From Pseudomonadota bacterium (lineage in GTDB: Bacteria; Pseudomonadota; Gammaproteobacteria; Steroidobacterales; Steroidobacteraceae), in contig JAJYLP010000002.1 of the NCBI GenBank assembly GCA_021787615.1, forward strand, positions 41,716 to 105,715: a stretch of 64,000 nt of DNA, given 5' to 3'. A program made the position numbers and the translations under genes. Under the pieces are notes generated by a model. It had not been told where the DNA came from, made no database searches, and saw only the letters and a program-made list of their open reading frames with translations. This document shows, one piece after another, positions 47,415 through 58,639 of this stretch. Each line of letters begins with the position of its first letter. The stretch's first letter is position 1.

Positions 47415-47468
47415 CACCCGGCGCTCTGCTGCGCCGCTCGACCCGCGGCGCAGCGGCGGCCCGCTTGT

Positions 47469-47516
47469 GGGGATGGGGTCCCCCAGGAACCGCCTGTCAG
47501 GCTGATGACTCCTGCC
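47469..47516 (+). ncRNA. Fluoride riboswitch (crcB motif) upstream of enolase
   Basis: The layout matches the crcB motif: a 5' GGGGATGGGGTC block, CCCC, a small hairpin GCCT-GTC-AGGC and the conserved CTGATGACTCCT at the 3' end. The pairings hold: GGGG (47469-47472) with CCCC forms the pseudoknot, GGGGT with ACTCC closes the main stem with one G-U, and AAC lies before the hairpin. The start codon of eno lies about 50 nt on. A GC hairpin with a GAAA loop (47520-47535) in between has no T run, so control may be translational. Enolase is a known fluoride target and a known member of fluoride riboswitch regulons. Confidence 0.85.
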
Positions 47517-47567
47517 GGCCCGCCCGAAAGGGTGGTGAGTGTGCTTTGATTGGGATAAAGGAAGCCT

Positions 47568-48878: not shown

Positions 48879-49283
48879 GCGGCCGCTGACGGAGGGCGCG
48901 GAAAAGGGCGAGCCTGCGGCAATAAGCCGGCAGGGCGAGTCGCAGAGGCGTGCCGCCCCCGCTCGGATCACGGTTCACGCGCAGCTCCGGCCTCGGATGC
49001 AGGGCTATGGACGGCACAGCGCTGGTACTTGAGCCAAACACGCCGTCAGTGGACGATCTGAGACACGGAGAGGGCATTGTTCCCAGATCCGCCGCGAGGC
49101 TGATGATGCCTGCTCCAGCGTCACGGTGAACGGTACGCCATCCGCGCGGCACGGCAGACCCCGGTCACGGCACCTCTCTTCGATGCTGGCGTTCGAGCGG
49201 TAGCGCTTGCAGGGTGCGCTCGACGTCACCACGCCGCCGGCAGGCCGCTCTGGCGGGGCAGTCGCAGTGCTGAGGACCGGCAC
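48879..49283. other. Intergenic region holding an orphan fluoride riboswitch; no gene
   Basis: No reading frame with family resemblance was found on either strand. Besides the riboswitch at 49067-49114 the only feature is a possible promoter, TTGAGC-17-GACGAT (49029-49057). The next gene on the plus strand beyond it does not exist: a minus-strand gene ends at 49284. Confidence 0.5.
49067..49114 (+). ncRNA. Fluoride riboswitch (crcB motif) without a downstream gene
   Basis: Same pattern as the two copies at 56.9-57.1 kb: GGAGAGGGCATT, TTCCC, a GCC-GCGA-GGC hairpin and CTGATGATGCCTGC. The 16-nt string GGCTGATGATGCCTGC is identical to that at 57096-57111. The pseudoknot GGAG/TTCC uses one G-U, and GGCAT/ATGCC closes the main stem. 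No open reading frame of useful length starts within 170 nt downstream on this strand, and the next gene is convergent. It looks like the leader of a deleted gene (crcB would be an obvious candidate), or it controls antisense transcription into the membrane-complex operon. Confidence 0.75.
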
Positions 49284-51269
49284 CTAACGCAGCGTCAGGG
49301 CGAGGATTACGATGAGCAGCGTCCCGATCAGTCCCAGATAGAAGTTCAGATCCCCCGACTGCAGCGCGCGCAGCCAGCCGGCCAACCGCCAGACCGCACG
49401 CCGGACGGGGTCGAACAGCGCCGGGCCGAATACGTCCGCCACGTCGTGCTCGAACTCCAGCCTGTGGATGAAGTAAGCGACGGCACGATGCTCACGTGCG
49501 GTATCCAACGTGGGCCGGTAGATGAAGCTGTAGAAAGTGCGCATCGCGTTGGAGAATGTCAGGGAAGTCGTCGCGGAACGCTGGGGATCTTCGCGCTGGC
49601 CTCCATACCAGACCGGTGCGCGCCGCACGCGGTGGCGGCGGCTGTTCAGCAGCAGCAGCAGCGGAAGGACGGCAAGCAGCGGCATGACGATGACCAGCAG
49701 CGAGGGCGAGATGAACGCGAACGAGTCCGTCAGGGGCACGAGCAGCCAGCCGGTGGTCATGGCGTGTGCCGCGTTCGCGCCGAATTGCGCCACGTTGGCG
49801 CTCTCCAGACCGTGCAGCCACAACGGCATGCCCACGGCCGAGCCCAGCACGGCGAGGCCGAGAACGAACACCGCGCCATCGTAACGCATGCTCACACGAG
49901 GTGCCTGCGGCGAATGCCCATCGCCGAGCAGGCCGATGCCGAACGCCTTGATGAATGTCGCGAACGCAATCGCCGCGGTCAGCGCCAAAGCGGCGCCCGC
50001 CAGCGCCAGCGTCAGTCGGCCGCCCAGGGTGGTGAGATGGAAGCCCTGGAAAAGCGTCTGAAACGTGAACCACTCGGTCACGAAGCCGATCTGCGGCGGC
50101 ATGGCCGCGAGGCTCATGGCTGCGAACAGCGCGCCGACCCCGAATATTGGGTGCGCCGTGCGCAGCCAACCGCGTTGCGCGAGCCGGTACGTGCCACCGG
50201 CAACGTACACGCCGTCGGCGCCGAGAAACATCCCGCCCTTGGCGAGTGCATGTCCCGACAGATGGAGCACGGCGACCGTCCAGGCGAGTCCCGCCAGGGC
50301 CGCTTGGCCGTCCGCGCGAAACAGCAGGCTCGCCCCAAGCGTCGTCACCGCAATGGCGGCGTTCTCCGCCGTAGAGAAGGCGAGCAGAGCTCGCCAGTCG
50401 TCCTGCTGGAACGCATACAGCGCCGCCAGTATCGAGGTCAATGCGCCGACGGCCGTGACCAGGATGCCGAGGTCAAAGAGTCCAGCGCCCCGCCCGAGCC
50501 AGTTCACGAGCGTGCGCGAGAGCGCGAAGAACGCTGCATTGAGCAGCACCCCGGAGAGAATGGCGCCCGAGGCGCCGCTGCCGTTGCCGTAGGCGCCCGG
50601 GAGCCATTCGTAGAACGGCAGCAGCCCGAGCTTGGCGCCGAATCCGACGAGCGCCAGCAGCCCGACCGCCATGCGTGTGCCGGGACTCAGGGTCTGTGCC
50701 CCGCGAGTGAATTCCTCGAACGCGACGGAGCCGCCGACGTGTCGCGAGAGCAGCAGCAGCGCGAGCAGAACGGCCACCGTCCCGACCTCGAGCAGCGCCA
50801 ACATGTAGAGCGTCCGCCGCCCGGCCTGCAGCGTGGTGCGCTCGGAGAGGATCATGATCGCGCCCCCGAGGCTCATCAGCTCCCAGGCAATGAGCAAGGC
50901 GTACGCGTCCTGCAGCCCGAACAGTCCCAGCGCGCCGAGCAAACACAGCGCCGCGCCGAAGAGCCATCCCGCTCGCGCGCCGCGGATCGGCGTAGCGAGT
51001 GCGACGGCGAGCGCTGCCGGCAGCAGACCGAAGCCCATCAGCCACAATGCCCCGGGTGCGTAGTGCAGCCGCACGGTCTGATCGGCCAGGGTGAGCGGCA
51101 AGACCCGCGAGCCGGCGCCCTGGGGCAGCGCCTCGAATGCGCCCGCAAGAGCGGCTGCCGCGCCGAGCGCGATCAGCCACCGCGCCATCGAAGTGAGTCG
51201 CGCCAGAGCGCACAACGCGCCAGCCACCCACAGCCAGAATGCCGCGATCAACAGCTCAGGCATGCTCAT
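49284..51269 (-). CDS. Antiporter-like membrane subunit (HyfB/NuoL-related) of an Ehr complex
   Basis: 661-residue membrane protein of the complex I/hydrogenase-4 antiporter-like subunit group. About 16 helices are visible. GAKLGLLPFYEWLPGAYG carries the proton-path Lys, AILSGVLLNAAFFALSR and LHLSGHALAKGGMFLGADGV carry the conserved His/Lys, and AAMPPQIGFVTEWFTFQ follows. The family pumps protons or Na+ in concert with a soluble redox arm. It is last in the operon, its start overlapping the NuoB-like gene by 14 nt. Two such subunits (this one and the HyfF-like one) imply at least two ion channels. Divergent-strand expression is under a fluoride riboswitch at the operon head. Confidence 0.88.
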   Translation of the reverse strand: MSMPELLIAAFWLWVAGALCALARLTSMARWLIALGAAAALAGAFEALPQGAGSRVLPLTLADQTVRLHYAPGALWLMGFGLLPAALAVALATPIRGARAGWLFGAALCLLGALGLFGLQDAYALLIAWELMSLGGAIMILSERTTLQAGRRTLYMLALLEVGTVAVLLALLLLSRHVGGSVAFEEFTRGAQTLSPGTRMAVGLLALVGFGAKLGLLPFYEWLPGAYGNGSGASGAILSGVLLNAAFFALSRTLVNWLGRGAGLFDLGILVTAVGALTSILAALYAFQQDDWRALLAFSTAENAAIAVTTLGASLLFRADGQAALAGLAWTVAVLHLSGHALAKGGMFLGADGVYVAGGTYRLAQRGWLRTAHPIFGVGALFAAMSLAAMPPQIGFVTEWFTFQTLFQGFHLTTLGGRLTLALAGAALALTAAIAFATFIKAFGIGLLGDGHSPQAPRVSMRYDGAVFVLGLAVLGSAVGMPLWLHGLESANVAQFGANAAHAMTTGWLLVPLTDSFAFISPSLLVIVMPLLAVLPLLLLLNSRRHRVRRAPVWYGGQREDPQRSATTSLTFSNAMRTFYSFIYRPTLDTAREHRAVAYFIHRLEFEHDVADVFGPALFDPVRRAVWRLAGWLRALQSGDLNFYLGLIGTLLIVILALTLR

Positions 51270-52107
51270 CTCCCGATCGCTCCGAGCCCGACCTCAGCTG
51301 CCCGCCGCGCACGCGCTGCGGCACCCGCTGCAGGAGCATCAGCAGCGCATGGATGATCGCCGGCGGATTGGGCGGACAGCCCGGCAGGTACACATCCACC
51401 GGCAGCACGCCCTCCAGTCCGAGGCCGCAGGCGTAGCCGCCGCCGTTGGTGCCCCCGGAGACTGCGCACGCGCCCGCGGCCATCACGAAGCGCGGCTCCG
51501 GCATCGCTTCGTAGGTCTCCATGAGCGGTCCGCGCAGGGCGTAGGTCACCGGCCCGGTGACCAGCAGCAAATCGGCAAAGCGCGGCGAGGCGGTGAAGAA
51601 GACACCGAAGCGGTGCAGGTTGTAGTAGGGGTTGTTGAGGGCCTGCAGCTCCGATTCGCAGCCGTTGCACGAGCCCGCATCGACATGGCGGATGTGCAGG
51701 CTCCGGCCGAACACGCGGCGGATCTCGCGCTGCAAAGACCTCCCGTCGGCTGATGCGCCAGCGCGCGTCCAGACGAGATCCTCGCGCATGGGGCTGCCAA
51801 ATGCCCAGTCCTCTGACGAGCTGAACGCGCCCGAGGGACATGCCTCGACACAGAGCTGACACACCACACAGCGGCCGTAATCCACGGTCACGCGCTCATC
51901 ACCGGCGCCGGGTGCGAGGCGGATGGCGCCGGGGAGGCAGGCGTCCGCACACTTGCGGCAGCCCTCCTGGCATTTTTCTGGATTGAAGCGCGGCAGGCCG
52001 AGAAAGCCGGCTTGGCCAGGCTCGGCGCCCCTCCCGCGCCAGCGACTGGTCGCTTTTCCCCGGGCGAGCCCGTAGAGCGTCCAGAGCGAGATCGTCTTCA
52101 AAGCCAT
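51256..52107 (-). CDS. Fused ferredoxin / NuoB-like small subunit of the Ehr complex
   Basis: 283 residues joining two functions that are separate genes (hyfH and hyfI) in E. coli. The N-terminal third has two [4Fe-4S] motifs, CQEGCRKCADACLPG and CVVCQLCVEACPSG. The C-terminal two thirds are a NuoB-like subunit with AGSCNGCESELQA, GACAVSGG and LPGCPPNPPA, all four N2-cluster cysteines intact. Electron transfer from ferredoxin domain to the N2 site is therefore feasible. Translation is coupled to the next gene by a 14-nt overlap. It follows the large-subunit-like gene in the same operon after 12 nt. Confidence 0.9.
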   Translation of the reverse strand: MALKTISLWTLYGLARGKATSRWRGRGAEPGQAGFLGLPRFNPEKCQEGCRKCADACLPGAIRLAPGAGDERVTVDYGRCVVCQLCVEACPSGAFSSSEDWAFGSPMREDLVWTRAGASADGRSLQREIRRVFGRSLHIRHVDAGSCNGCESELQALNNPYYNLHRFGVFFTASPRFADLLLVTGPVTYALRGPLMETYEAMPEPRFVMAAGACAVSGGTNGGGYACGLGLEGVLPVDVYLPGCPPNPPAIIHALLMLLQRVPQRVRGGQLRSGSERSGDEHA

Positions 52108-52119
52108 GGATGCGCTCCG

Positions 52120-53622
52120 TCAGCGGTCACAGCCGGCCACCGTCAGGCCGAAGCTGGCCTCGTTGATCGCGTAGTCCATCATGTTGGTGTCATGGACGGT
52201 GTAGGGGAAAACCCGCCAGTTTGAGAAGCTGGGGGATTTGATCTTGACGCGCGCCAGCCGGCCGCCGGCATCGATGTGGATGGCGTAGTACGCGGTGCCA
52301 CGAGGCGTTTCGGCCCAGCCTAGCCCCTCGGTGCCCGGCCGCAGCCGGCAGTCGGCGAGCAGCGGGCCATCGGGCAGGCCGTCAAGGACGGCCCGGATCA
52401 GGCTGATGCTGCCGGCGATCTCGTCGATGCGCACCTGTTGGCGCGCGTGAGCGTCACAGCCCTCCTGCACCGCGACGCGCAAGGGCAGCTCGCTGTAGGC
52501 ACCGTACGGCTGGTCGCGCCGCGAGTCGCGATCGACGCCCGAAGCGCGCTCCACCGGCCCGGTCGCGCCCTGATCGAAGGCGAGCTGCTGCCCGAGCATC
52601 CCCGTGGTGATCAGACGATCGCGATGGCTGTTGGTGGAGCTGAGCAGGTCCGCATAGCGCTGAAATTCACCCTCGATGTGCGCGAGGTCGGCGGCAAGCC
52701 TGGCGAGCACCGGCTCGCGCCGCATCCCGCCGGGGGCGATGAGCCCGCGCAGCAGCCGGCTGCCGCTCACGCGGCAGTTCGCCTGCTTGGCCAGTTCCTC
52801 GAGGTATTTGCCCTGCGCCTCGCCGACCTTGAGCGTCGTCGTATGGCACAGGTATCCGAGATAATGCAGGTGGTTGTAGAGCCTCTCGAGCTCGGCGAGC
52901 AACACCCGCAGCCAGGCGCCGCGGGACGGCACATCACAGCCCGCAGCAGCTTCCAATGCCTGGCAGTAAGCCAACGAGTGCGCGACGCTGCCGACGCCGG
53001 AGACGCGTTCGGCGAGGACGGTGCCGAGGGACGGGGACATTCCTTCGAAGCGTTTCTCCATGCCGCGGTGCTTGAAGAACAGCTGCGGGTAGTAGTGCAG
53101 GATCGCCTCGCCGATGTACAAGAAGGCGAGCTGGGTCGACTCCAGGACATCGGCGCGGACCGGTCCGAAGGGCAGCAGCTGAACGTCCTGTGGCGCACCG
53201 CCGGCGAGTTCCGGCAGGGGTTGCGGCGCGGGCACGTAGCGCAGACCCGCAGCAGGCCCGGGCATCAAAGGCGGCCGCTCGGCCACCGCTCCGGGCAGCA
53301 GCACGAGCGGTTGCGGCAGTGGCTGACCGCTGAAGTCGATGCCGCACAGATCCGTCGTCTCGCGCTCGTACCAGGACAGCAGCGGCGCGCTCGGCGCGAG
53401 GCTCGGCGGGGGTTGCCCGCGCGGCTGGCAGCGCCAGACATGCGGTGGTCGGCCCCGGGCGGGATGCAACACATAGCGAAGCTCGGGTGTCTCGCGAGCG
53501 TCGGGGAACCACCCGTACATGAACTGCATGCGAGCCCCAGCGGCCAGGGCGGCGCCGCACCGCGGCGGCAGTTCCGACAGCGCGAGGTCCTCGTGGGTGA
53601 CCGCAAGCGGCGCGGTGCTCAT
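52120..53622 (-). CDS. NuoCD/hydrogenase large-subunit-like protein lacking NiFe ligands (Ehr type)
   Basis: 500 residues: a NuoC-like N-terminal domain of about 150 residues and a NuoD/HycE-like catalytic domain. KHRGMEKRFEG and AHSLAYCQALE align with hydrogenase-4 large subunits. At the position of RVCGICG it reads RVSGVGS, and the terminal DPC-x2-C pattern is replaced by GLTVAGCDR, so the NiFe site cannot form. This is the definition of the energy-converting hydrogenase-related (Ehr) group, whose electron acceptor is unknown. A quinone-type site as in complex I is possible. Start at 53622 overlaps the HyfF-like stop (ATGA). Third-last gene of the operon. Confidence 0.88.
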   Translation of the reverse strand: MSTAPLAVTHEDLALSELPPRCGAALAAGARMQFMYGWFPDARETPELRYVLHPARGRPPHVWRCQPRGQPPPSLAPSAPLLSWYERETTDLCGIDFSGQPLPQPLVLLPGAVAERPPLMPGPAAGLRYVPAPQPLPELAGGAPQDVQLLPFGPVRADVLESTQLAFLYIGEAILHYYPQLFFKHRGMEKRFEGMSPSLGTVLAERVSGVGSVAHSLAYCQALEAAAGCDVPSRGAWLRVLLAELERLYNHLHYLGYLCHTTTLKVGEAQGKYLEELAKQANCRVSGSRLLRGLIAPGGMRREPVLARLAADLAHIEGEFQRYADLLSSTNSHRDRLITTGMLGQQLAFDQGATGPVERASGVDRDSRRDQPYGAYSELPLRVAVQEGCDAHARQQVRIDEIAGSISLIRAVLDGLPDGPLLADCRLRPGTEGLGWAETPRGTAYYAIHIDAGGRLARVKIKSPSFSNWRVFPYTVHDTNMMDYAINEASFGLTVAGCDR

Positions 53623-55103
53623 CGCGCGCCTCCGCCAAGCTGAGCGGCGATGAGGGAGAAATAGTGACTGAAGGCGCTGGGCCACCACACCCCGAGCGCG
53701 AGCAACGGTAGAAGCGCGAGCCACATCGGCAGCAGGCACCAGAAGCGCTCCTGCCGCGGCGCTCGCCAGCGCGTGACGGCAGCTGCGGCCTGCGGGCTCT
53801 CGCCAAAGTACATGGCGCGGAAGCGGTTGAGGAAGCCGACGAAGATCACCACCAGCAGCAACAGCATCACGTACACCGCCCAGGCATTGGGGCCGGCGAG
53901 CCCTGCGCGCAGAATGGTGAACTCGCTAAGGAACAGCCCGAATGGCGGAGCGCCGGTGATGGCGACCGCGCCGGCAATCCATAGTGCCCCAGCGACCGGC
54001 ATGGCCGTGAGCACGTGATGAATGCGCCCGATGCGCTTGCTGCGGTAGGCGTGCATCGCGTCGCCGGAGCCGAAGAACATCAGCGACTTGTTGAGCGAGT
54101 GATTGAGCATGTGATAGAGCGCGCCGGCGATGCCGAGCGGTCCGCCGAACCCGAACCCGAGCGTCATCACCCCCATGTGCTCGACGCTGGAGTAGGCCAT
54201 CAGCCGTTTGACGTCCGTTTGCCGTGTGATGAACAGCGCAGCGATGGCCAGCGACAGAGCGCCAATCGCGATCACGACGGTGCGGGGAAGGGCGCCGAGG
54301 TGCACGTTGTCGATCACGCCGATGAAGCGCGCGATGCCGATCATGGCGGTGTTGAGCAGTGCGCCGGAGAGCATCGCTGAGACTGGCGCCGGGCCCTCGC
54401 TGTGCGCATCGGGCAGCCAGGTGTGCATTGGGGCGAGGCCGACCTTGGTGCCGAAACCGATGAAAACCAGCAGGAATGCCACGAGCGACAGGGTCGGATT
54501 CAGCTGCGGGGCGACAGCACGAAGCGCCGCCCAGGTGAGATTGTAGGTCGGCCCGAGGTGCAGGCTGCCTGCCCAGTAATAGAGGATGATGCCAAGCAGC
54601 GCCAGGCTGATGCCGGCTGAGACCACCACGATGTACTTCCAGGCCGCCTCGACCGCCTCGCGCGTCTTGTCGAAGCCGACCAGAAATGTGCTCACCAGCG
54701 TGGTGAGCTCGATCGCGATCCAGTACACCCCGATGTTGTTCATCAGGGGTCCGAGCAGAACCGTGAACGCGAATCCGGCGAACAGGGCGTAGAAGCGATG
54801 CAGCCGCGCCGGCTTATCGATTGAGCGCATGTAGCCGATCGCGTACAGGGAGGCGAGCAGGTACACGGCGGCAACGGACAGCTGGACCCACGCGCCGAGG
54901 GGATCGACGATGATGTACCCGTGCAGCAGGGTGTAGGGCCCGCCGCGGGCGATCGGCAGCAGCCGCAGCACCGCTGCGAACACCGCGATGGAGGCGAGCA
55001 GATTCAGGTACTCGGACACGCGCGGCGCGCCGATGAGCTCGCAAGCGAGAGCCGCCGCGAGCGGCGCGAGCAGGATGATGGCGACCAGCGATCCCGGGCT
55101 CAT
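53619..55103 (-). CDS. Antiporter-like membrane subunit (HyfF-related) of the Ehr complex
   Basis: 494-residue membrane subunit with about 14 helices. YIIVDPLGAWVQLSVAAVYLL, IAIELTTLVSTFLVGF, GFGTKVGLAPMHTWLPDAHSEGPAPVSAMLSG and HMLNHSLNKSLMFFGSGD are the classical Nuo/Hyf motifs with the Lys and His of the ion path. It begins at 55103, overlapping the HyfE-like gene by 4 nt, and ends on the ATGA shared with the large-subunit gene. Together with the HyfB-like subunit it gives the complex two ion-conducting arms. Confidence 0.9.
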   Translation of the reverse strand: MSPGSLVAIILLAPLAAALACELIGAPRVSEYLNLLASIAVFAAVLRLLPIARGGPYTLLHGYIIVDPLGAWVQLSVAAVYLLASLYAIGYMRSIDKPARLHRFYALFAGFAFTVLLGPLMNNIGVYWIAIELTTLVSTFLVGFDKTREAVEAAWKYIVVVSAGISLALLGIILYYWAGSLHLGPTYNLTWAALRAVAPQLNPTLSLVAFLLVFIGFGTKVGLAPMHTWLPDAHSEGPAPVSAMLSGALLNTAMIGIARFIGVIDNVHLGALPRTVVIAIGALSLAIAALFITRQTDVKRLMAYSSVEHMGVMTLGFGFGGPLGIAGALYHMLNHSLNKSLMFFGSGDAMHAYRSKRIGRIHHVLTAMPVAGALWIAGAVAITGAPPFGLFLSEFTILRAGLAGPNAWAVYVMLLLLVVIFVGFLNRFRAMYFGESPQAAAAVTRWRAPRQERFWCLLPMWLALLPLLALGVWWPSAFSHYFSLIAAQLGGGAR

Positions 55104-55780
55104 CCGACCAGCCTGCGCAGCTCGCGGGTGCTCGATGTACCGGCATGCACCGTGAGGTAGCGCACGAGCACGCCGAAGCACGCCACGACAACCAGCAGAT
55201 CGAACAGAATGACCAGCTCGATCAGCAGCGGCATCCCGGGCACCAGAATCTGCGAGCCGAGAAAGATGCCGTTCTCGATCACCAGCAGGCCGAGGATCTG
55301 GCTTACCACCTCGCTGCGCACCATGAGCATGAGAAAGCCGATGAGCTTCATCGACAGCATGGCGGTGAGGGCGAGCACGGCGACCGTGCCGGCAAGACCG
55401 AGCGCCTTGCTCACGTGATGGGCGACCACGAAGGCGAACAGCACGAGCAGGCCTCCCACCACCAGACTTGAGCTCGGCGCGAGCCGCTCGTGCAGCTCCC
55501 GGTCGACCTTCAGGCGACGGACGATTCTCAGCAGCAGGTACGGCAGCACCAGGCCGCGAAACAACGCGGTGAGCACCGCGATGCCATAGAGTTCAGGGTA
55601 TCCGCCGTAGTAGGCGACCGCCGCCGACAGCAAGGCGATGAGCCAGGACTGCAGCGCGAACGCGCCGAGGTAGGCATTGAGCCAGCGCGAGCCAAGCATC
55701 ACGAACGCCAGGAGCAGGCTCGTGATGGCGAGCAGGCTGAACAGGGACTGGGCAAGCGGCGGAAGCTGCGCGGCGAACAT
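55100..55780 (-). CDS. HyfE-like membrane subunit of the Ehr complex
   Basis: 226-residue membrane protein with six or seven helices, related to HyfE and by its second half to NuoK-type subunits: VLALTAMLSMKLIGFLMLMV and GLLVIENGIFLGSQIL carry the buried Glu of that fold. TALFRGLVLPYLLLRIVRRL is typical of HyfE. GAGGTAGGA directly before the ATG is a strong ribosome binding site. Between hyfC-like and hyfF-like genes with gap of 2 nt and overlap of 4 nt. Confidence 0.88.
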   Translation of the reverse strand: MFAAQLPPLAQSLFSLLAITSLLLAFVMLGSRWLNAYLGAFALQSWLIALLSAAVAYYGGYPELYGIAVLTALFRGLVLPYLLLRIVRRLKVDRELHERLAPSSSLVVGGLLVLFAFVVAHHVSKALGLAGTVAVLALTAMLSMKLIGFLMLMVRSEVVSQILGLLVIENGIFLGSQILVPGMPLLIELVILFDLLVVVACFGVLVRYLTVHAGTSSTRELRRLVG

Positions 55781-55782
55781 TC

Positions 55783-56727
55783 CTACCTCATCTGGTTGGC
55801 CACGATGGCGAGAATCGCGAGCACGAAGGAGGCGGCGAGCGGCTCCTGATAGCGGTAGTAACGCAGGCGCGACTGGGTCGTTTCCACCGCGACCACCACT
55901 GCGCCCACGGCCGCGAATTTCACGAGCAGTCCGCCGGCGGCCCCGAGCGCTCCGAGTGCCGTGCCCTGCACGGACAGCCCCCAAGGCAGCAGCAGCACGT
56001 TGCAGAAGATGATGTAGAGGATGAACTGCTTCATCGCTGAGGCCCAGCGCAGCAGCGCGAGCAGGGGGCCTGAGTACTCGAGGATCCGCCCCTCCTCGAT
56101 CATGTACACCTCGATGTGGGTGCTCGAGTGGAAGGGGAGCCGGTCGGTCTCGACGAGCAGCAGAATGAAGAACGCCGCGACCAGAAACAGGTGCGCTGGA
56201 CTCCAGTACACGGCGGGATTTCCGGCAAGCAGGTGGTTGACGACGAACGGCAGCATCGCTTTGGCCAAAAGCGTGATGCCGACAAACACCAGGATGAGAG
56301 TCGGTTCTGCCAGGATGCCGAGCATGACGGTGCGCGAGGAGCCGACGCCCCCGTAGGCGCTGCCGGAGTCCAGGCCCGCAAGCGTGATGAAGAACGAGCC
56401 GAGCGTCAGGATGAACCCGCCGCCGAGGATGTCGCCCATGTCGGACAGCGGCAGCGGAAAGTTCGTCAGTACCGGGATCAGGATCGGCACCGTCAGCATG
56501 CAGGTGAAGGCGACGACCGGCGCGATCCAATAGATGAAGCTGGCCGTCTCGGGGACCACGAGTTGCTTGTGGAACAGCTTCCACAGATCGCGGTACGGCT
56601 GCAAGATGCCCGGCCCCTGCGCGCGCTGCACCCGCTCTTCCCACTGCAGGATAGTTCCCTGCAGCAGCGGCGCGAGCACGATGACCGCAAGGACCTGTGT
56701 GATCTGCAGCAGGACGTCCCGGATCAC
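55783..56727 (-). CDS. HyfC/HycD/NuoH-like membrane subunit of the Ehr complex
   Basis: 314-residue subunit with eight helices, the piece that anchors the redox arm to the membrane in complex I and group 4 hydrogenases. GPGILQPYRDLWKLFHKQLV is the signature loop, and FFILLLVETDRLPFHSST then EVYMIEEGRILEYSGP carries the conserved acidic residues near the quinone/ion site. It begins at GTG with GGAAGG 7 nt upstream, and the start overlaps a small upstream frame (GTGA). First large gene of the operon. Confidence 0.9.
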   Translation of the reverse strand: MIRDVLLQITQVLAVIVLAPLLQGTILQWEERVQRAQGPGILQPYRDLWKLFHKQLVVPETASFIYWIAPVVAFTCMLTVPILIPVLTNFPLPLSDMGDILGGGFILTLGSFFITLAGLDSGSAYGGVGSSRTVMLGILAEPTLILVFVGITLLAKAMLPFVVNHLLAGNPAVYWSPAHLFLVAAFFILLLVETDRLPFHSSTHIEVYMIEEGRILEYSGPLLALLRWASAMKQFILYIIFCNVLLLPWGLSVQGTALGALGAAGGLLVKFAAVGAVVVAVETTQSRLRYYRYQEPLAASFVLAILAIVANQMR

Positions 56728-56867
56728 GCGTCAGCCTTCCGGTGCGCGCAGCGGCCGGGTGCAGCGCAGGCAGGGATGTCCCACGCCGCGATGCGTTCGG
56801 GCCGGACACACACCTCGGGCCGCGCGCGCAGCCTGCGGAAGGGACTCGGGACAAGCTCGGGTCGCAT
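56724..56867 (-). CDS. Possible 47-residue leader protein of the Ehr operon
   Basis: A short frame with a strong Shine-Dalgarno (GGAGGAG, about 9 nt before the ATG at 56867). Its TGA overlaps the GTG of the HyfC-like gene, so the two would be translationally coupled. The product (47 residues) is Arg-rich with three Cys (20, 34, 40) and no known family; RARPEVCVRPERIAAWDIP is its middle part. It lies between the fluoride riboswitch and the first operon gene, so it is either a real small subunit or a coupling frame that passes riboswitch control to the operon. Confidence 0.4.
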   Translation of the reverse strand: MRPELVPSPFRRLRARPEVCVRPERIAAWDIPACAAPGRCAHRKADA

Positions 56868-56900
56868 GCGCTACCGCTCCTCCGTCGCCATGACGGAATC

Positions 56901-56957
56901 GGTAGGCATCATCAGCCGTTGGCGGCAGTTTTTATTACGGGAGGAATGCCATCTCCC
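56901..56957 (-). ncRNA. Fluoride riboswitch (crcB motif) of the Ehr operon
   Basis: Read on the minus strand: GGGAGATGGCATTCCTCCC, a linker, GCCG-CCAA-CGGC hairpin, then CTGATGATGCCTAC. GGAGATGGCATTCCTCC is the 5' core I remember from the structurally studied Pseudomonas syringae fluoride riboswitch. The pseudoknot GGGAG/CTCCC and the stem GGCAT/ATGCC are perfect. The RNA would start at about its first base, given the promoter just upstream, and the operon's first start codon lies 30-170 nt downstream. Confidence 0.9.
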
Positions 56958-56965
56958 TGCGAGTC

Positions 56966-56994
56966 AATATACACAGGCGGTGAGGCACGGGCAA
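56966..56994 (-). promoter_or_regulatory. Sigma-70 promoter of the Ehr operon
   Basis: On the minus strand TTGCCC (56994-56989), 17-nt spacer, TATATT (56971-56966). The predicted start falls at 56959-56957, the first bases of the fluoride riboswitch. Confidence 0.75.
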
Positions 56995-57019
56995 GCAGCG
57001 GGGCGCTCTTGCATAACCC

Positions 57020-57048
57020 TTGCCGCGGCAGCGCGGTGATCATAGACT
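57020..57048 (+). promoter_or_regulatory. Sigma-70 promoter of the AAA ATPase gene
   Basis: TTGCCG (57020-57025), 17-nt spacer, TAGACT (57043-57048). The predicted start at about 57055 is just before the plus-strand fluoride riboswitch at 57059. Confidence 0.6.
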
Positions 57049-57058
57049 GGGCGTCGAG

Positions 57059-57112
57059 GGGAGATGGCATGCCTCCCTGAATCGCCGTGATTCGCGGCTG
57101 ATGATGCCTGCA
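57059..57112 (+). ncRNA. Fluoride riboswitch (crcB motif) of the AAA ATPase gene
   Basis: GGGAGATGGCATGCCTCCC, a linker, a GCCG...CGGC hairpin and CTGATGATGCCTGC. All pairings of the motif are perfect: GGGAG/CTCCC pseudoknot and GGCAT/ATGCC stem. It is the mirror of the riboswitch at 56957-56901, so the two form a 19-bp plus 15-bp inverted repeat around a shared promoter region of about 100 nt. The ATPase ATG lies 38 nt downstream. Confidence 0.88.
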
Positions 57113-57149
57113 GCGCACAGGTCTTTGACCGAGATCGACAGGCAATCCC

Positions 57150-57956
57150 ATGCAGCTTCAGTTCCCTGAGCTGGCCGCGCAGTTGCAAAATCGGCTGCTG
57201 CGCGGAGAGCATCTGACACTCTACGGCCCGCGCGGCGGTGGTAAGTCGACCCTGCTTATGCAACTGCATGCCCGCCTGGAGCGCAACGGCGTTCCCTGCT
57301 CCTATTCGGCTTGCACTGCCGCCCTTGATGACATCACCCGCGCGCTCGAGTGCGCCTATCCGGAAGTGGATACCCTCGAGGTCGCTCGCCGCACTGCCCG
57401 CGTGCGGCTGTGGAATGCGGCGGATCGGCGCGCTGGTGTACTGCTGCTCGATCACTTCCGCTGTAACGGCAGTGCGATGGTCTCTTTCTTGCGGCGGTTG
57501 CACGGCAAGATCGCCGGTGTGCTTACGGCGGTGGATATCGACGCGCAGAACGAGCACCGCCGTATGCGGCCGTGGCGCTATGGGGCGATGTCCGTGCGAA
57601 TGCCGATGGCGACCTCGCGTCAACTGAGACGTCTGCTCGATGAGCGATGGCGCGCTGCGCGATTGCCGCCGCTGAAGGTGGAGGCAGCCCAAGCCTTCGT
57701 CGAGGCAGCGCGCGGCCGGCCCGGGTGGATCGCCAAGTGCGTGGAGCTTGCCTGCGAGCGGCGCTACTGGTGCGAGTTCGGCCCACTCGTCACGGTCGTG
57801 CGCGTGGACACCGAGGCAGCGGTGCGTTACCAGGCGCTCGGCATGGTGCGCGCGCAGTGGACTGCGGCGGCGGGCGATCAGGGGTCTTCGGCAACCGCCG
57901 GCGGATCGGCCGCGTCCGGATTGATGACCCCAAAGCGCGCCGGCAGGTTGGCGTAG
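57150..57956 (+). CDS. AAA-type ATPase of unknown role, fluoride-riboswitch controlled
   Basis: 268-residue P-loop ATPase. Walker A is GPRGGGKST (26-34) and Walker B is GVLLLDHF near residue 94. The C-terminal half is helical (SRQLRRLLDERW, VEAAQAFVEAARGRPGWIAKCVELA), as in small AAA proteins of the ATPase/Cdc6 or MoxR-like kind; I cannot place it in a named family. It diverges from the Ehr operon and has its own fluoride riboswitch, so it probably serves the same response, for example in assembling the complex. The last 26 residues (TAGGSAASGL) overlap the convergent DUF190 gene by 79 nt and are probably not conserved. Confidence 0.8.
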   Translation: MQLQFPELAAQLQNRLLRGEHLTLYGPRGGGKSTLLMQLHARLERNGVPCSYSACTAALDDITRALECAYPEVDTLEVARRTARVRLWNAADRRAGVLLLDHFRCNGSAMVSFLRRLHGKIAGVLTAVDIDAQNEHRRMRPWRYGAMSVRMPMATSRQLRRLLDERWRAARLPPLKVEAAQAFVEAARGRPGWIAKCVELACERRYWCEFGPLVTVVRVDTEAAVRYQALGMVRAQWTAAAGDQGSSATAGGSAASGLMTPKRAGRLA

Positions 57957-58231
57957 AACAGGCGGACTTTCTCGCGGGTCACCAAGTCGAGCAGCTTCTG
58001 CGCCTCTTCCGGCGTGACGATGAACTCGACCTCGACGCACAGAGTGCCCGCGAGCTCGAAGAAGCGCGCCTCGTGCAGCGTGTGATGGCGGCCGAAGCCG
58101 GCCATCGCCTTGAACGCCGAGCCGCCGCGCACCCCGAGCCGATTGCCCTGTTCGAGCAGCCATTCCCACACCAGCCGGCCGTGATGGTGGTGGTCCTCGT
58201 GCACGTAAAATCGCAGGAGCGAGCCGTTCAT
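57878..58231 (-). CDS. DUF190 (PII-like) protein
   Basis: 117 residues. NGSLLRFYVHEDHHHHGRLVWEWLLEQ at the N-terminus, then GVRGGSAFKAMAGFGRH, FELAGTLCVEVEFIV and VTREKVRLFYANLPARFGV are the complete DUF190 (COG1993) pattern, a ferredoxin-like fold related to PII signal proteins. Family members are often encoded beside crcB (fluoride channel) genes, which fits the fluoride riboswitches nearby. The four-His run is a likely metal-binding patch. I start at MNGSLL; a longer upstream frame exists without similarity. No riboswitch of its own was found upstream. Convergent with the AAA gene, overlapping it by 79 nt. Confidence 0.88.
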   Translation of the reverse strand: MNGSLLRFYVHEDHHHHGRLVWEWLLEQGNRLGVRGGSAFKAMAGFGRHHTLHEARFFELAGTLCVEVEFIVTPEEAQKLLDLVTREKVRLFYANLPARFGVINPDAADPPAVAEDP

Positions 58232-58639
58232 GATCCGCTGGAGTTGATATTCCTGCTGCAGTCTATGCCTGGCGGCGCGGCGACTCAATCCTACGTGCAG
58301 TGACAGGCTTTTGTGCGCACGGCGCGCCGGCGGGCCTGATTCGGCGGGCGACGGGATGTCTTGCCGGGGCGATGGTGGTCCATGGCGAAGCGTGTGGGGC
58401 GATGCGGCAGACCGGCGGGTCGCTGAAGCGGGTCTGTTCGGCAGCAACTCATCGAGCGCGTACCGTAGGGTCACAGCACGTCGCGGCGCCCCTGCCCCGC
58501 ATGCCGCACCGGGTCATCGGGCGGTTGCAGCAACCTTTGTCGAGCGTATTGCTGGGGAGGGTGGCGGCCGCGCGGATGCGCTGGGGCTGGAGCAGGATCA
58601 CGCACGACGCATGCGTAGTTTTGCGTATGCGGTCTTGCG
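58232..58639. other. Intergenic region, nothing identified
   Basis: Between the divergent DUF190 and L,D-transpeptidase genes. Very GC-rich, with only short frames on both strands and no family resemblance. GGGGCGATGGTGG near 58363-58376 looks like the 5' block of a fluoride riboswitch, but the CTGATG 3' block is missing, so it was not called. Confidence 0.4.

What the first reader, a model, noticed from the sequence alone, without database searches (positions are those of the whole stretch)
56901..57112. Two back-to-back fluoride riboswitches drive an Ehr membrane complex and an AAA ATPase
What first looks like a 54-nt inverted repeat resolves into two crcB-motif fluoride riboswitches facing away from each other, each just behind a good promoter (TTGCCC-17-TATATT minus, TTGCCG-17-TAGACT plus). 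One heads a six-gene hydrogenase-4-like operon whose catalytic Cys are lost; the other heads a small AAA ATPase. crcB-motif RNAs have, as I recall, been reported near genes annotated as formate hydrogenlyase, but I know of no explained role. A fluoride-induced ion pump without hydrogenase activity, plus a dedicated ATPase, would be a new arm of fluoride resistance, possibly moving H+ or Na+ against HF-driven acidification.
Basis: partly seen in the sequence, partly recalled or inferred. Interest (0 to 1): 0.93.

Follow-up and report, generated by a model that had tools for sequence, protein, structure and literature searches.

The report
Fluoride-switched ion pump without hydrogenase
Two back-to-back elements that match the fluoride riboswitch family sit in front of an ATPase gene and of an operon for a hydrogenase-like membrane complex that lacks the metal-holding cysteines of hydrogenases, and this complex is predicted to pump ions to help the bacterium survive fluoride.

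Summary
Rfam's fluoride riboswitch model hits both strands (50.3 and 42.9 bits; cut-off 34). A third copy precedes enolase and a fourth is sub-threshold.

The complex is not formate hydrogenlyase: none of the four Ni-Fe cysteines remains, while 12 Fe-S cysteines are invariant. The riboswitch marks one Ehr clade: 27 of 28 rows against 0 of 23 in its sister (two of the 23 have short contigs upstream). In the class sample 10 of 11 close hits have it upstream, against 0 of 45 others. Ten hydrogenase-4/FHL controls keep all four cysteines and none has the switch upstream. Published passages name these targets 'formate hydrogenlyase'; in my sample that does not fit.

The divergent pair recurs: 17 pairs in 12 of 28 riboswitch-bearing genomes of the genus. 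The ATPase, a TnsC/Orc-like AAA+ protein, also occurs without Ehr genes nearby. No FluC match and no CLC-F signature was found in this 99.7%-complete genome.

Most likely mechanism (inferred): fluoride opens translation and the complex rebuilds the proton-motive force that HF entry drains.

The parts
47460..47521 (+). fluoride riboswitch RS1, before enolase
   Evidence: RF01734 51.4 bits
47568..48878 (+). enolase
   Evidence: PF00113/PF03952
49058..49119 (+). RS4, sub-threshold riboswitch with no clear + strand gene behind it; probable relic of the riboswitch that heads the ATPase in the close relative G029
   Evidence: 33.2 bits; ORFs; alignment to G029
49284..51269 (-). HyfB-like antiporter-type subunit
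   Evidence: PF00361; best NCBIfam model hydrogenase 4 subunit B, below its cut-off
51256..52107 (-). NuoI-NuoB fusion: 2x[4Fe-4S] ferredoxin domain plus small subunit
   Evidence: PF01058 and Fer4; 12 Fe-S motif Cys invariant in 10 rows
52120..53622 (-). HyfG-like large subunit (NuoC/D type) without Ni-Fe cysteines
53619..55106 (-). HyfF-like antiporter-type subunit
   Evidence: PF00361; channel residues aligned
55100..55789 (-). HyfE-like membrane subunit
   Evidence: NF008556 54.6 bits, below its cut-off
55783..56727 (-). HyfD/NuoH-like membrane anchor, first complex gene
   Evidence: PF00146; HycD 126 bits
56724..56867 (-). leader ORF, 47 codons, stop overlaps the hyfD start (GTGA)
56864..56909 (-). 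predicted OFF hairpin hiding Shine-Dalgarno and start of the leader ORF
56896..56965 (-). fluoride riboswitch RS2
   Evidence: RF01734 50.3 bits
56966..56994 (-). promoter TTGCCC-17-TATATT
   Evidence: conserved
57020..57048 (+). promoter TTGCCG-17-TAGACT
   Evidence: sequence; conserved
57051..57117 (+). fluoride riboswitch RS3
   Evidence: RF01734 42.9 bits
57104..57152 (+). predicted translational platform of the ATPase: UGCCUG may pair with CAGGCA near the start codon
57150..57956 (+). small AAA+ ATPase, TnsC/MuB/Orc-like predicted fold
57878..58360 (-). DUF190 protein, 3' end overlaps the ATPase gene
   Evidence: PF02641 66.8 bits

Best explanation
The locus is a fluoride-response module in which two divergent elements matching the fluoride riboswitch family would switch on translation of a hydrogenase-like (Ehr) membrane complex without a Ni-Fe site and of a small AAA+ ATPase, and the complex is predicted to pump protons (or Na+) out of the cell. 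Inferred chain: HF enters, dissociates, acidifies the cytoplasm and lowers the proton-motive force; fluoride bound to the aptamer holds the pseudoknot, so its 3' strand can no longer pair with the ribosome site (leader ORF of the Ehr operon; start of the ATPase gene). The new complex takes electrons through its ferredoxin-like domain and three probable 4Fe-4S clusters and uses them to expel H+ or Na+. This would restore the force that exporters need, together with extra enolase to outlast inhibition. Shown: aptamer matches, gene order, loss of Ni-Fe cysteines, retained Fe-S motif cysteines, clade-wide riboswitch link. Inferred: fluoride binding here, the OFF hairpins, the donor, the acceptor, the ion and the benefit.
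For: Riboswitch matches well over cut-off. One Ehr clade carries the riboswitch: 27 of 28 rows against 0 of 23; 10 of 11 against 0 of 45 in 369 class genomes, 3.1-3.8 kb upstream of hyfG. Same on three Burkholderiaceae plasmids, 55-57% identical. Twelve Fe-S motif Cys invariant in 10 rows. HyfF aligns with the Glu and Lys of antiporter-type subunits (roles recalled). Riboswitch-linked neighbours form a stress set: enolase, CrcB, Na+/H+ exchanger, MutS-like, dynamin. The review PMC11139923 says that HF entry lowers the proton-motive force and that exporters depend on it (passages). OFF hairpin: 91.7% of cells paired against 29-56% for slid versions, 5 pairs with a double change, one cell each.
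Against: No expression, binding or transport data. No electron donor or acceptor is encoded in the operon. The quinone Tyr of complex I is Gly here (role recalled), so the redox end is unknown. The ATPase-side hairpin shows no covariation (0 double changes); RNAalifold's covariation term for the Ehr-side hairpin is slightly unfavourable (+0.38); against single-sequence shuffles only 2 of 26 leaders fall below 0.05. The leader ORF is not clade-wide: the three plasmids have none. I found no fluoride exporter in this genome, so 'power for the exporter' lacks its exporter here.
Confidence: 0.55

Rival explanations
1. The complex works as a cation/proton antiporter (Mrp-like) for pH homeostasis, with redox only as a gate or not at all.
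For: Two antiporter-type subunits; HyfF's best solved relative is named as a monovalent cation/H+ antiporter subunit; Na+/H+ exchangers are also riboswitch-linked in the genus and in print.
Against: Twelve Fe-S motif cysteines are invariant in 10 rows, which an antiporter would not need.
Confidence: 0.2
2. It is an Mbx-like redox converter that balances electron carriers when enolase and glycolysis are blocked; ion movement is secondary.
For: Fe-S motifs kept; Ehr/Mbx complexes are described as oxidoreductases (passages of PMC6349859); enolase is in the same cluster.
Against: No NAD(P)- or sulfur-reducing subunit recognised in the six genes.
Confidence: 0.13
3. It is formate hydrogenlyase / hydrogenase-4 and serves a shift to anaerobic fermentation.
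For: Name and association in PMC2864571; PMC11139923 sets it beside shifts to fermentation; homology to HycE, 190 bits.
Against: No Cys at any of the four Ni-Fe places in 37 of 37 riboswitch-linked rows; 10 of 10 hydrogenase-4/FHL controls have all four and none has the switch upstream; HypD not found in 10 of 15 Ehr-bearing genomes of the genus, 5 of the 8 that are at least 90% complete; no formate dehydrogenase in the operon.
Confidence: 0.02
4. The complex itself expels fluoride or HF and replaces FluC/CLC-F here.
For: No CrcB match and no CLC-F signature in this 99.69%-complete genome, which carries the riboswitch module.
Against: No known fluoride path in this fold (recalled); 13 of 15 Ehr-bearing genomes of the genus also have CrcB; a gap of the assembly may hold an exporter.
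Confidence: 0.06

Closest known systems
Fluoride riboswitch (crcB motif, RF01734)
   Same: Fold, conserved core and location in 5' leaders; three of four copies over the cut-off.
   Different: Two copies back to back 85 nt apart, a recurrent divergent module; translational platforms predicted, no terminator found by the scan.
Ehr (energy-converting hydrogenase-related) complexes
   Same: Group 4 hydrogenase-like subunits with antiporter-type subunits and no Ni-Fe ligands (definition as given in passages of PMC6349859).
   Different: A separate, riboswitch-marked clade; NuoI-NuoB fusion; sits in fluoride islands.
Formate hydrogenlyase / hydrogenase-4 (E. coli Hyc/Hyf)
   Same: Subunit set B, D, E, F, G-like; HycE 190 bits, HycD 126 bits.
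   Different: All four Ni-Fe Cys missing, no formate dehydrogenase gene in the operon.
TnsC/MuB and Cdc6/Orc1 AAA+ ATPases
   Different: Only 11-15% identity in those rows, no partner domains; occurs in fluoride clusters.

Membership tests
Fluoride riboswitch RF01734 | score over Rfam's gathering cut-off | tested here: met
   51.4, 50.3 and 42.9 against 34 bits; the fourth copy, 33.2, fails
Fluoride riboswitch RF01734 | binds fluoride and switches expression | not testable with these tools
   needs in-line probing and reporters
Ehr complexes | group 4/complex I-like large and small subunits without Ni-Fe ligands | tested here: met
   no Cys at the four places in 37 of 37 riboswitch-linked rows
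Ehr complexes | antiporter-type membrane subunits | tested here: met
   PF00361 in two subunits
Ehr complexes | couples redox to charge translocation | not testable with these tools
   needs purified complex or vesicles
Formate hydrogenlyase / [NiFe] group 4 hydrogenase | two CxxC pairs binding Ni-Fe | tested here: not met
   RVSGVG and GLTVAG in place of RVCGIC and DPCYSC
Formate hydrogenlyase / [NiFe] group 4 hydrogenase | formate dehydrogenase subunit in the operon | tested here: not met
   none of the six genes; an Fdh-alpha lies on another contig, C129
Respiratory complex I | NADH module NuoE/F/G in the operon | tested here: not met
   absent from the six genes
Respiratory complex I | quinone-site Tyr of the 49-kDa subunit | tested here: not met
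   Gly at the aligned place (residue role recalled)
TnsC/Orc-type AAA+ | AAA+ fold of that clade | tested here: inconclusive

The most novel reading that the evidence does not exclude
A whole clade of Ehr complexes ('F-Ehr') has evolved into a fluoride-dedicated, redox-powered ion pump under riboswitch control. It spreads in fluoride islands, even on a conjugative plasmid, and in this exporter-less genome it takes the place of FluC and CLC-F as the main defence. The long-standing 'formate hydrogenlyase' link of the crcB motif is a misannotation of this pump.
Probability: 0.3. Interest if true: 0.92.

Novelty: new variant of a known kind. Interest (0 to 1): 0.78.

Why it matters
Since 2010 the crcB motif has been reported before 'formate hydrogen lyase' genes (PMC2864571), and a 2024 review sets this beside metabolic shifts to fermentation (PMC11139923). 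The riboswitch-linked complexes in my sample lack every Ni-Fe ligand and so cannot be ordinary [NiFe] hydrogenases. This turns an unexplained association into a testable question: does a fluoride-induced, redox-driven ion pump protect cells whose proton-motive force is drained by HF? It also gives Ehr complexes, whose role needs experimental testing (PMC6349859), a clade with a likely inducer.

Tried and rejected
Dedicated ATPase for Ehr: rejected, since the ATPase also occurs without Ehr genes on the fetched stretch (13 of 26 loci; some contigs are short). Transcription terminators: none found in 56850-57200. Ni-Fe loss as something special to fluoride: rejected, since the sister Ehr rows lack an intact CxxC pair too. 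HypD absence as proof: only partial, since 5 of 15 Ehr-bearing genomes of the genus, this one included, have HypD, presumably for another enzyme, and 7 of the 15 are less than 90% complete. ATPase family by sequence: the profile finds only P-loop matches in the PDB; a PADLOC match at 20 bits was not followed. Paper searches for Ehr plus fluoride and for divergent fluoride riboswitches gave nothing on point in the rows listed; Baker et al. 2012 is not held, so I cannot say what its gene lists contain.

Dropped rows and weak points: of 74 riboswitch places in the genus I mapped 69, leaving out this genome's 4 and one 22.5-bit place. Some partners of the 17 divergent pairs are below the cut-off. 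G016, G033 and G046 share one practically identical island (99.9% or more), so they are not independent. In the tree I dropped duplicate rows. The 480-bit line was set after seeing the list, and profile A1 was built from 12 riboswitch-linked rows and one other, so one search is partly circular; the tree is the fairer test, and its rows are related. Of the 23 riboswitch-free sister rows, L038 and L145 have under 3 kb of contig upstream, so their state is open; contig ends were not checked for all 45 places. The searches over more than 40 genomes used stricter filters and scored few candidates per genome (12-13), so weak partners may be missed. Of the 11 rows under 323 bits I fetched 10 as controls; G464 was left out.

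Full report
CHECK. Rfam's covariance model finds the fluoride riboswitch three times over its cut-off: 47460-47521 (+) before enolase, 56965-56896 (-) and 57051-57117 (+). A fourth copy at 49058-49119 (+) scores 33.2 against 34. A search of the whole genome at E 0.001 finds these four and no other, all within 9.7 kb.

THE COMPLEX. Six genes run from 56727 down to 49284: HyfD/NuoH-, HyfE-, HyfF-, HyfG (NuoC/D)-, NuoI-NuoB fusion and HyfB-like. The large subunit aligns with E. coli HycE (190 bits); RVCGIC there is RVSGVG here, and the C-terminal DPCYSC of hydrogenase-4/FHL controls is GLTVAG. Of the 62 rows (duplicates included), the 37 riboswitch-linked ones have no Cys at any of the four places; among the other 25 one (L138) keeps a single Cys. 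As a positive control, ten hydrogenase-4/FHL-like large subunits from the phylum sample have all four, 10 of 10; two of the 29 other phylum rows have a single Cys. Eight ferredoxin-type and four small-subunit cysteines are invariant in 10 of 10 rows, so three 4Fe-4S clusters are probably kept. Residues known from complex I work (recalled) line up in HyfF: Glu of helix 5, Lys of helix 7. The quinone Tyr of complex I is Gly. Of 15 genomes of the genus that carry the riboswitch-linked complex, 10 show no HypD (5 of the 8 that are at least 90% complete), and 6 have no formate dehydrogenase hit above 215 bits, so neither seems required.

THE LINK IS CLADE-WIDE. In 369 genomes of the class, the 11 large-subunit hits over 480 bits have the riboswitch on the same strand 3.1-3.8 kb upstream in 10 cases; the other 45 hits over 300 bits have it in none (Fisher p 3e-10; threshold set afterwards, rows not independent). 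The tree has one starred clade of 28 rows, 27 with the riboswitch (exception: G205/L165, whose contig ends 355 nt behind the hyfD match), and a starred sister of 23 rows with none; 21 of these 23 have more than 4 kb of contig upstream, L038 and L145 less than 3 kb. In 398 genomes of the phylum, 15 large-subunit places lie in genomes that also hold a riboswitch; only this window's has it upstream. On plasmids, Burkholderia multivorans NZ_CP143553, B. cenocepacia NZ_CP073671 (typed conjugative) and Caballeronia pSBC1_2 carry 55-57% identical complexes, with riboswitches 3.4 kb upstream of the large subunit and 4, 7 and 3 riboswitches on the fetched stretches. In the two annotated records the neighbours are dynamin, PPase and DUF190, with MutS in one, and CrcB and a chloride-channel-type (CLC) gene in the other.

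THE MODULE. Of 58 genomes of the genus, this one included, 28 have a riboswitch match. I count 17 divergent pairs in 12 genomes, some with one partner below the cut-off, against none found in the other 25 riboswitch-bearing genomes of the class sample or the other 66 of the phylum sample (fewer candidates were scored in the latter two). Ten of the 17 are Ehr|ATPase, two of them in one shared island (G016, G033); others join dynamin with HEAT or Ehr. Gaps in Ehr|ATPase pairs are 77-90 nt, and 10 of 10 keep TTGC..-17-TATATT on the Ehr side and TTGC..-17/18-TA..CT on the ATPase side. Genes directly behind the 69 mapped riboswitches of the other genomes, by longest ORF, include Ehr (17), ATPase (14), enolase (6), IlvD (4, three of them fragments), HEAT (4), CrcB (4), and MutS-like, dynamin and Na+/H+ exchanger (3 each) (one of each of the last six named by Pfam).

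THE SWITCH. On the Ehr side the transcript continues into a leader ORF with a GGAG-type Shine-Dalgarno (used to pick it). In 14 of 14 complexes of this window's type (the window, 12 other loci of the genus and L089) this ORF of 22-53 codons ends 3 nt before or 4 nt into the hyfD start, as expected for translational coupling; of the 9 other leaders examined, the three plasmids have no such ORF and the rest no consistent one. The 3' strand of the aptamer pseudoknot (AUGCC) can instead pair with the start region of this ORF; the consensus hairpin has 91.7% of cells paired against 29-56% when slid, and 5 pairs with a change on both sides, one cell each (3 of 500 shuffles reach that), while RNAalifold's covariation term is slightly unfavourable. 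In single-sequence shuffles 24 of 26 leaders are not below 0.05. On the ATPase side UGCCUG/CAGGCA gives 93.8% against 21-59% when slid, but no double changes. Both fit a fluoride-ON translational switch; this is inference.

HISTORY. In the close relative G029 (70% complete), enolase, one riboswitch and the ATPase are contiguous and 92% identical to this window's two flanks; the junction lies inside the riboswitch. RS4 and RS3 are direct repeats about 8 kb apart that bracket the Ehr segment here, so recombination between riboswitches probably removed it in G029, where the search finds only the sister type (458 bits). G023 (98% complete) also shows only the sister type (463 bits) but keeps both riboswitches, one of them below the cut-off.

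EXPORTERS. This genome (99.69% complete) has no CrcB match, while 48 of the 57 other genomes of the genus do. Its three CLC proteins lack the CLC-F signatures named in PMC11139923 by pattern search. A gap in the 176-contig assembly remains possible.

LITERATURE. Seen: passages of PMC2864571, PMC8752731, PMC7266159, PMC8004769, PMC11139923 and PMC6349859; the others only as search listings. The association with 'formate hydrogen lyase' and with enolase, mutS, antiporters and PPase is known. I saw no text on a riboswitch-marked Ehr clade, on divergent fluoride riboswitches, or on this ATPase in the listings; the library lacks most subscription papers.

VERDICT. Real, conserved and under-explained. 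New, as far as I could see: the identity of the 'FHL' as one Ehr clade, the divergent module with its ATPase, and a testable pump mechanism. Not shown: any activity.

Noticed in passing
window 49058-49119 (+); L041: A sub-threshold riboswitch with no clear gene behind it; with RS3 it forms direct repeats bracketing the 8-kb Ehr segment, which is missing in G029 with a junction inside the riboswitch.
   Followed up: yes
window 56724-56867 (-): Leader ORF between riboswitch and hyfD, starting MRPE or VHRPE in 12 of 14 loci of this type, its stop overlapping or just before the hyfD start in 14 of 14.
   Followed up: partly
window 57878-57956: ATPase and DUF190 genes overlap tail to tail by 79 nt; a tail-to-tail arrangement recurs in relatives.
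   Followed up: no
G000:C33 (L167): This genome has a second Ehr-type complex without riboswitch, near a CLC gene.
   Followed up: partly
L035, L056, L058 (G033:C47, G016:C26, G046:C519): The same fluoride island is 99.9% or more identical in genomes of three species: recent transfer or a binning error.
   Followed up: partly
L056 10535-12086; L035: A riboswitch is followed by a short piece of ilvD and then two crcB genes; in L038 a full-length ilvD stands behind the riboswitch.
   Followed up: no
L155 (NZ_CP073671): A plasmid typed conjugative carries a fluoride island with seven riboswitches on the fetched stretch, including a divergent pair 171 nt apart.
   Followed up: partly
L036-L039: One genome of the genus (G055) has 11 riboswitch matches, two below the cut-off, also before FabF, an SNF2 helicase and a CBS protein.
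   Followed up: no
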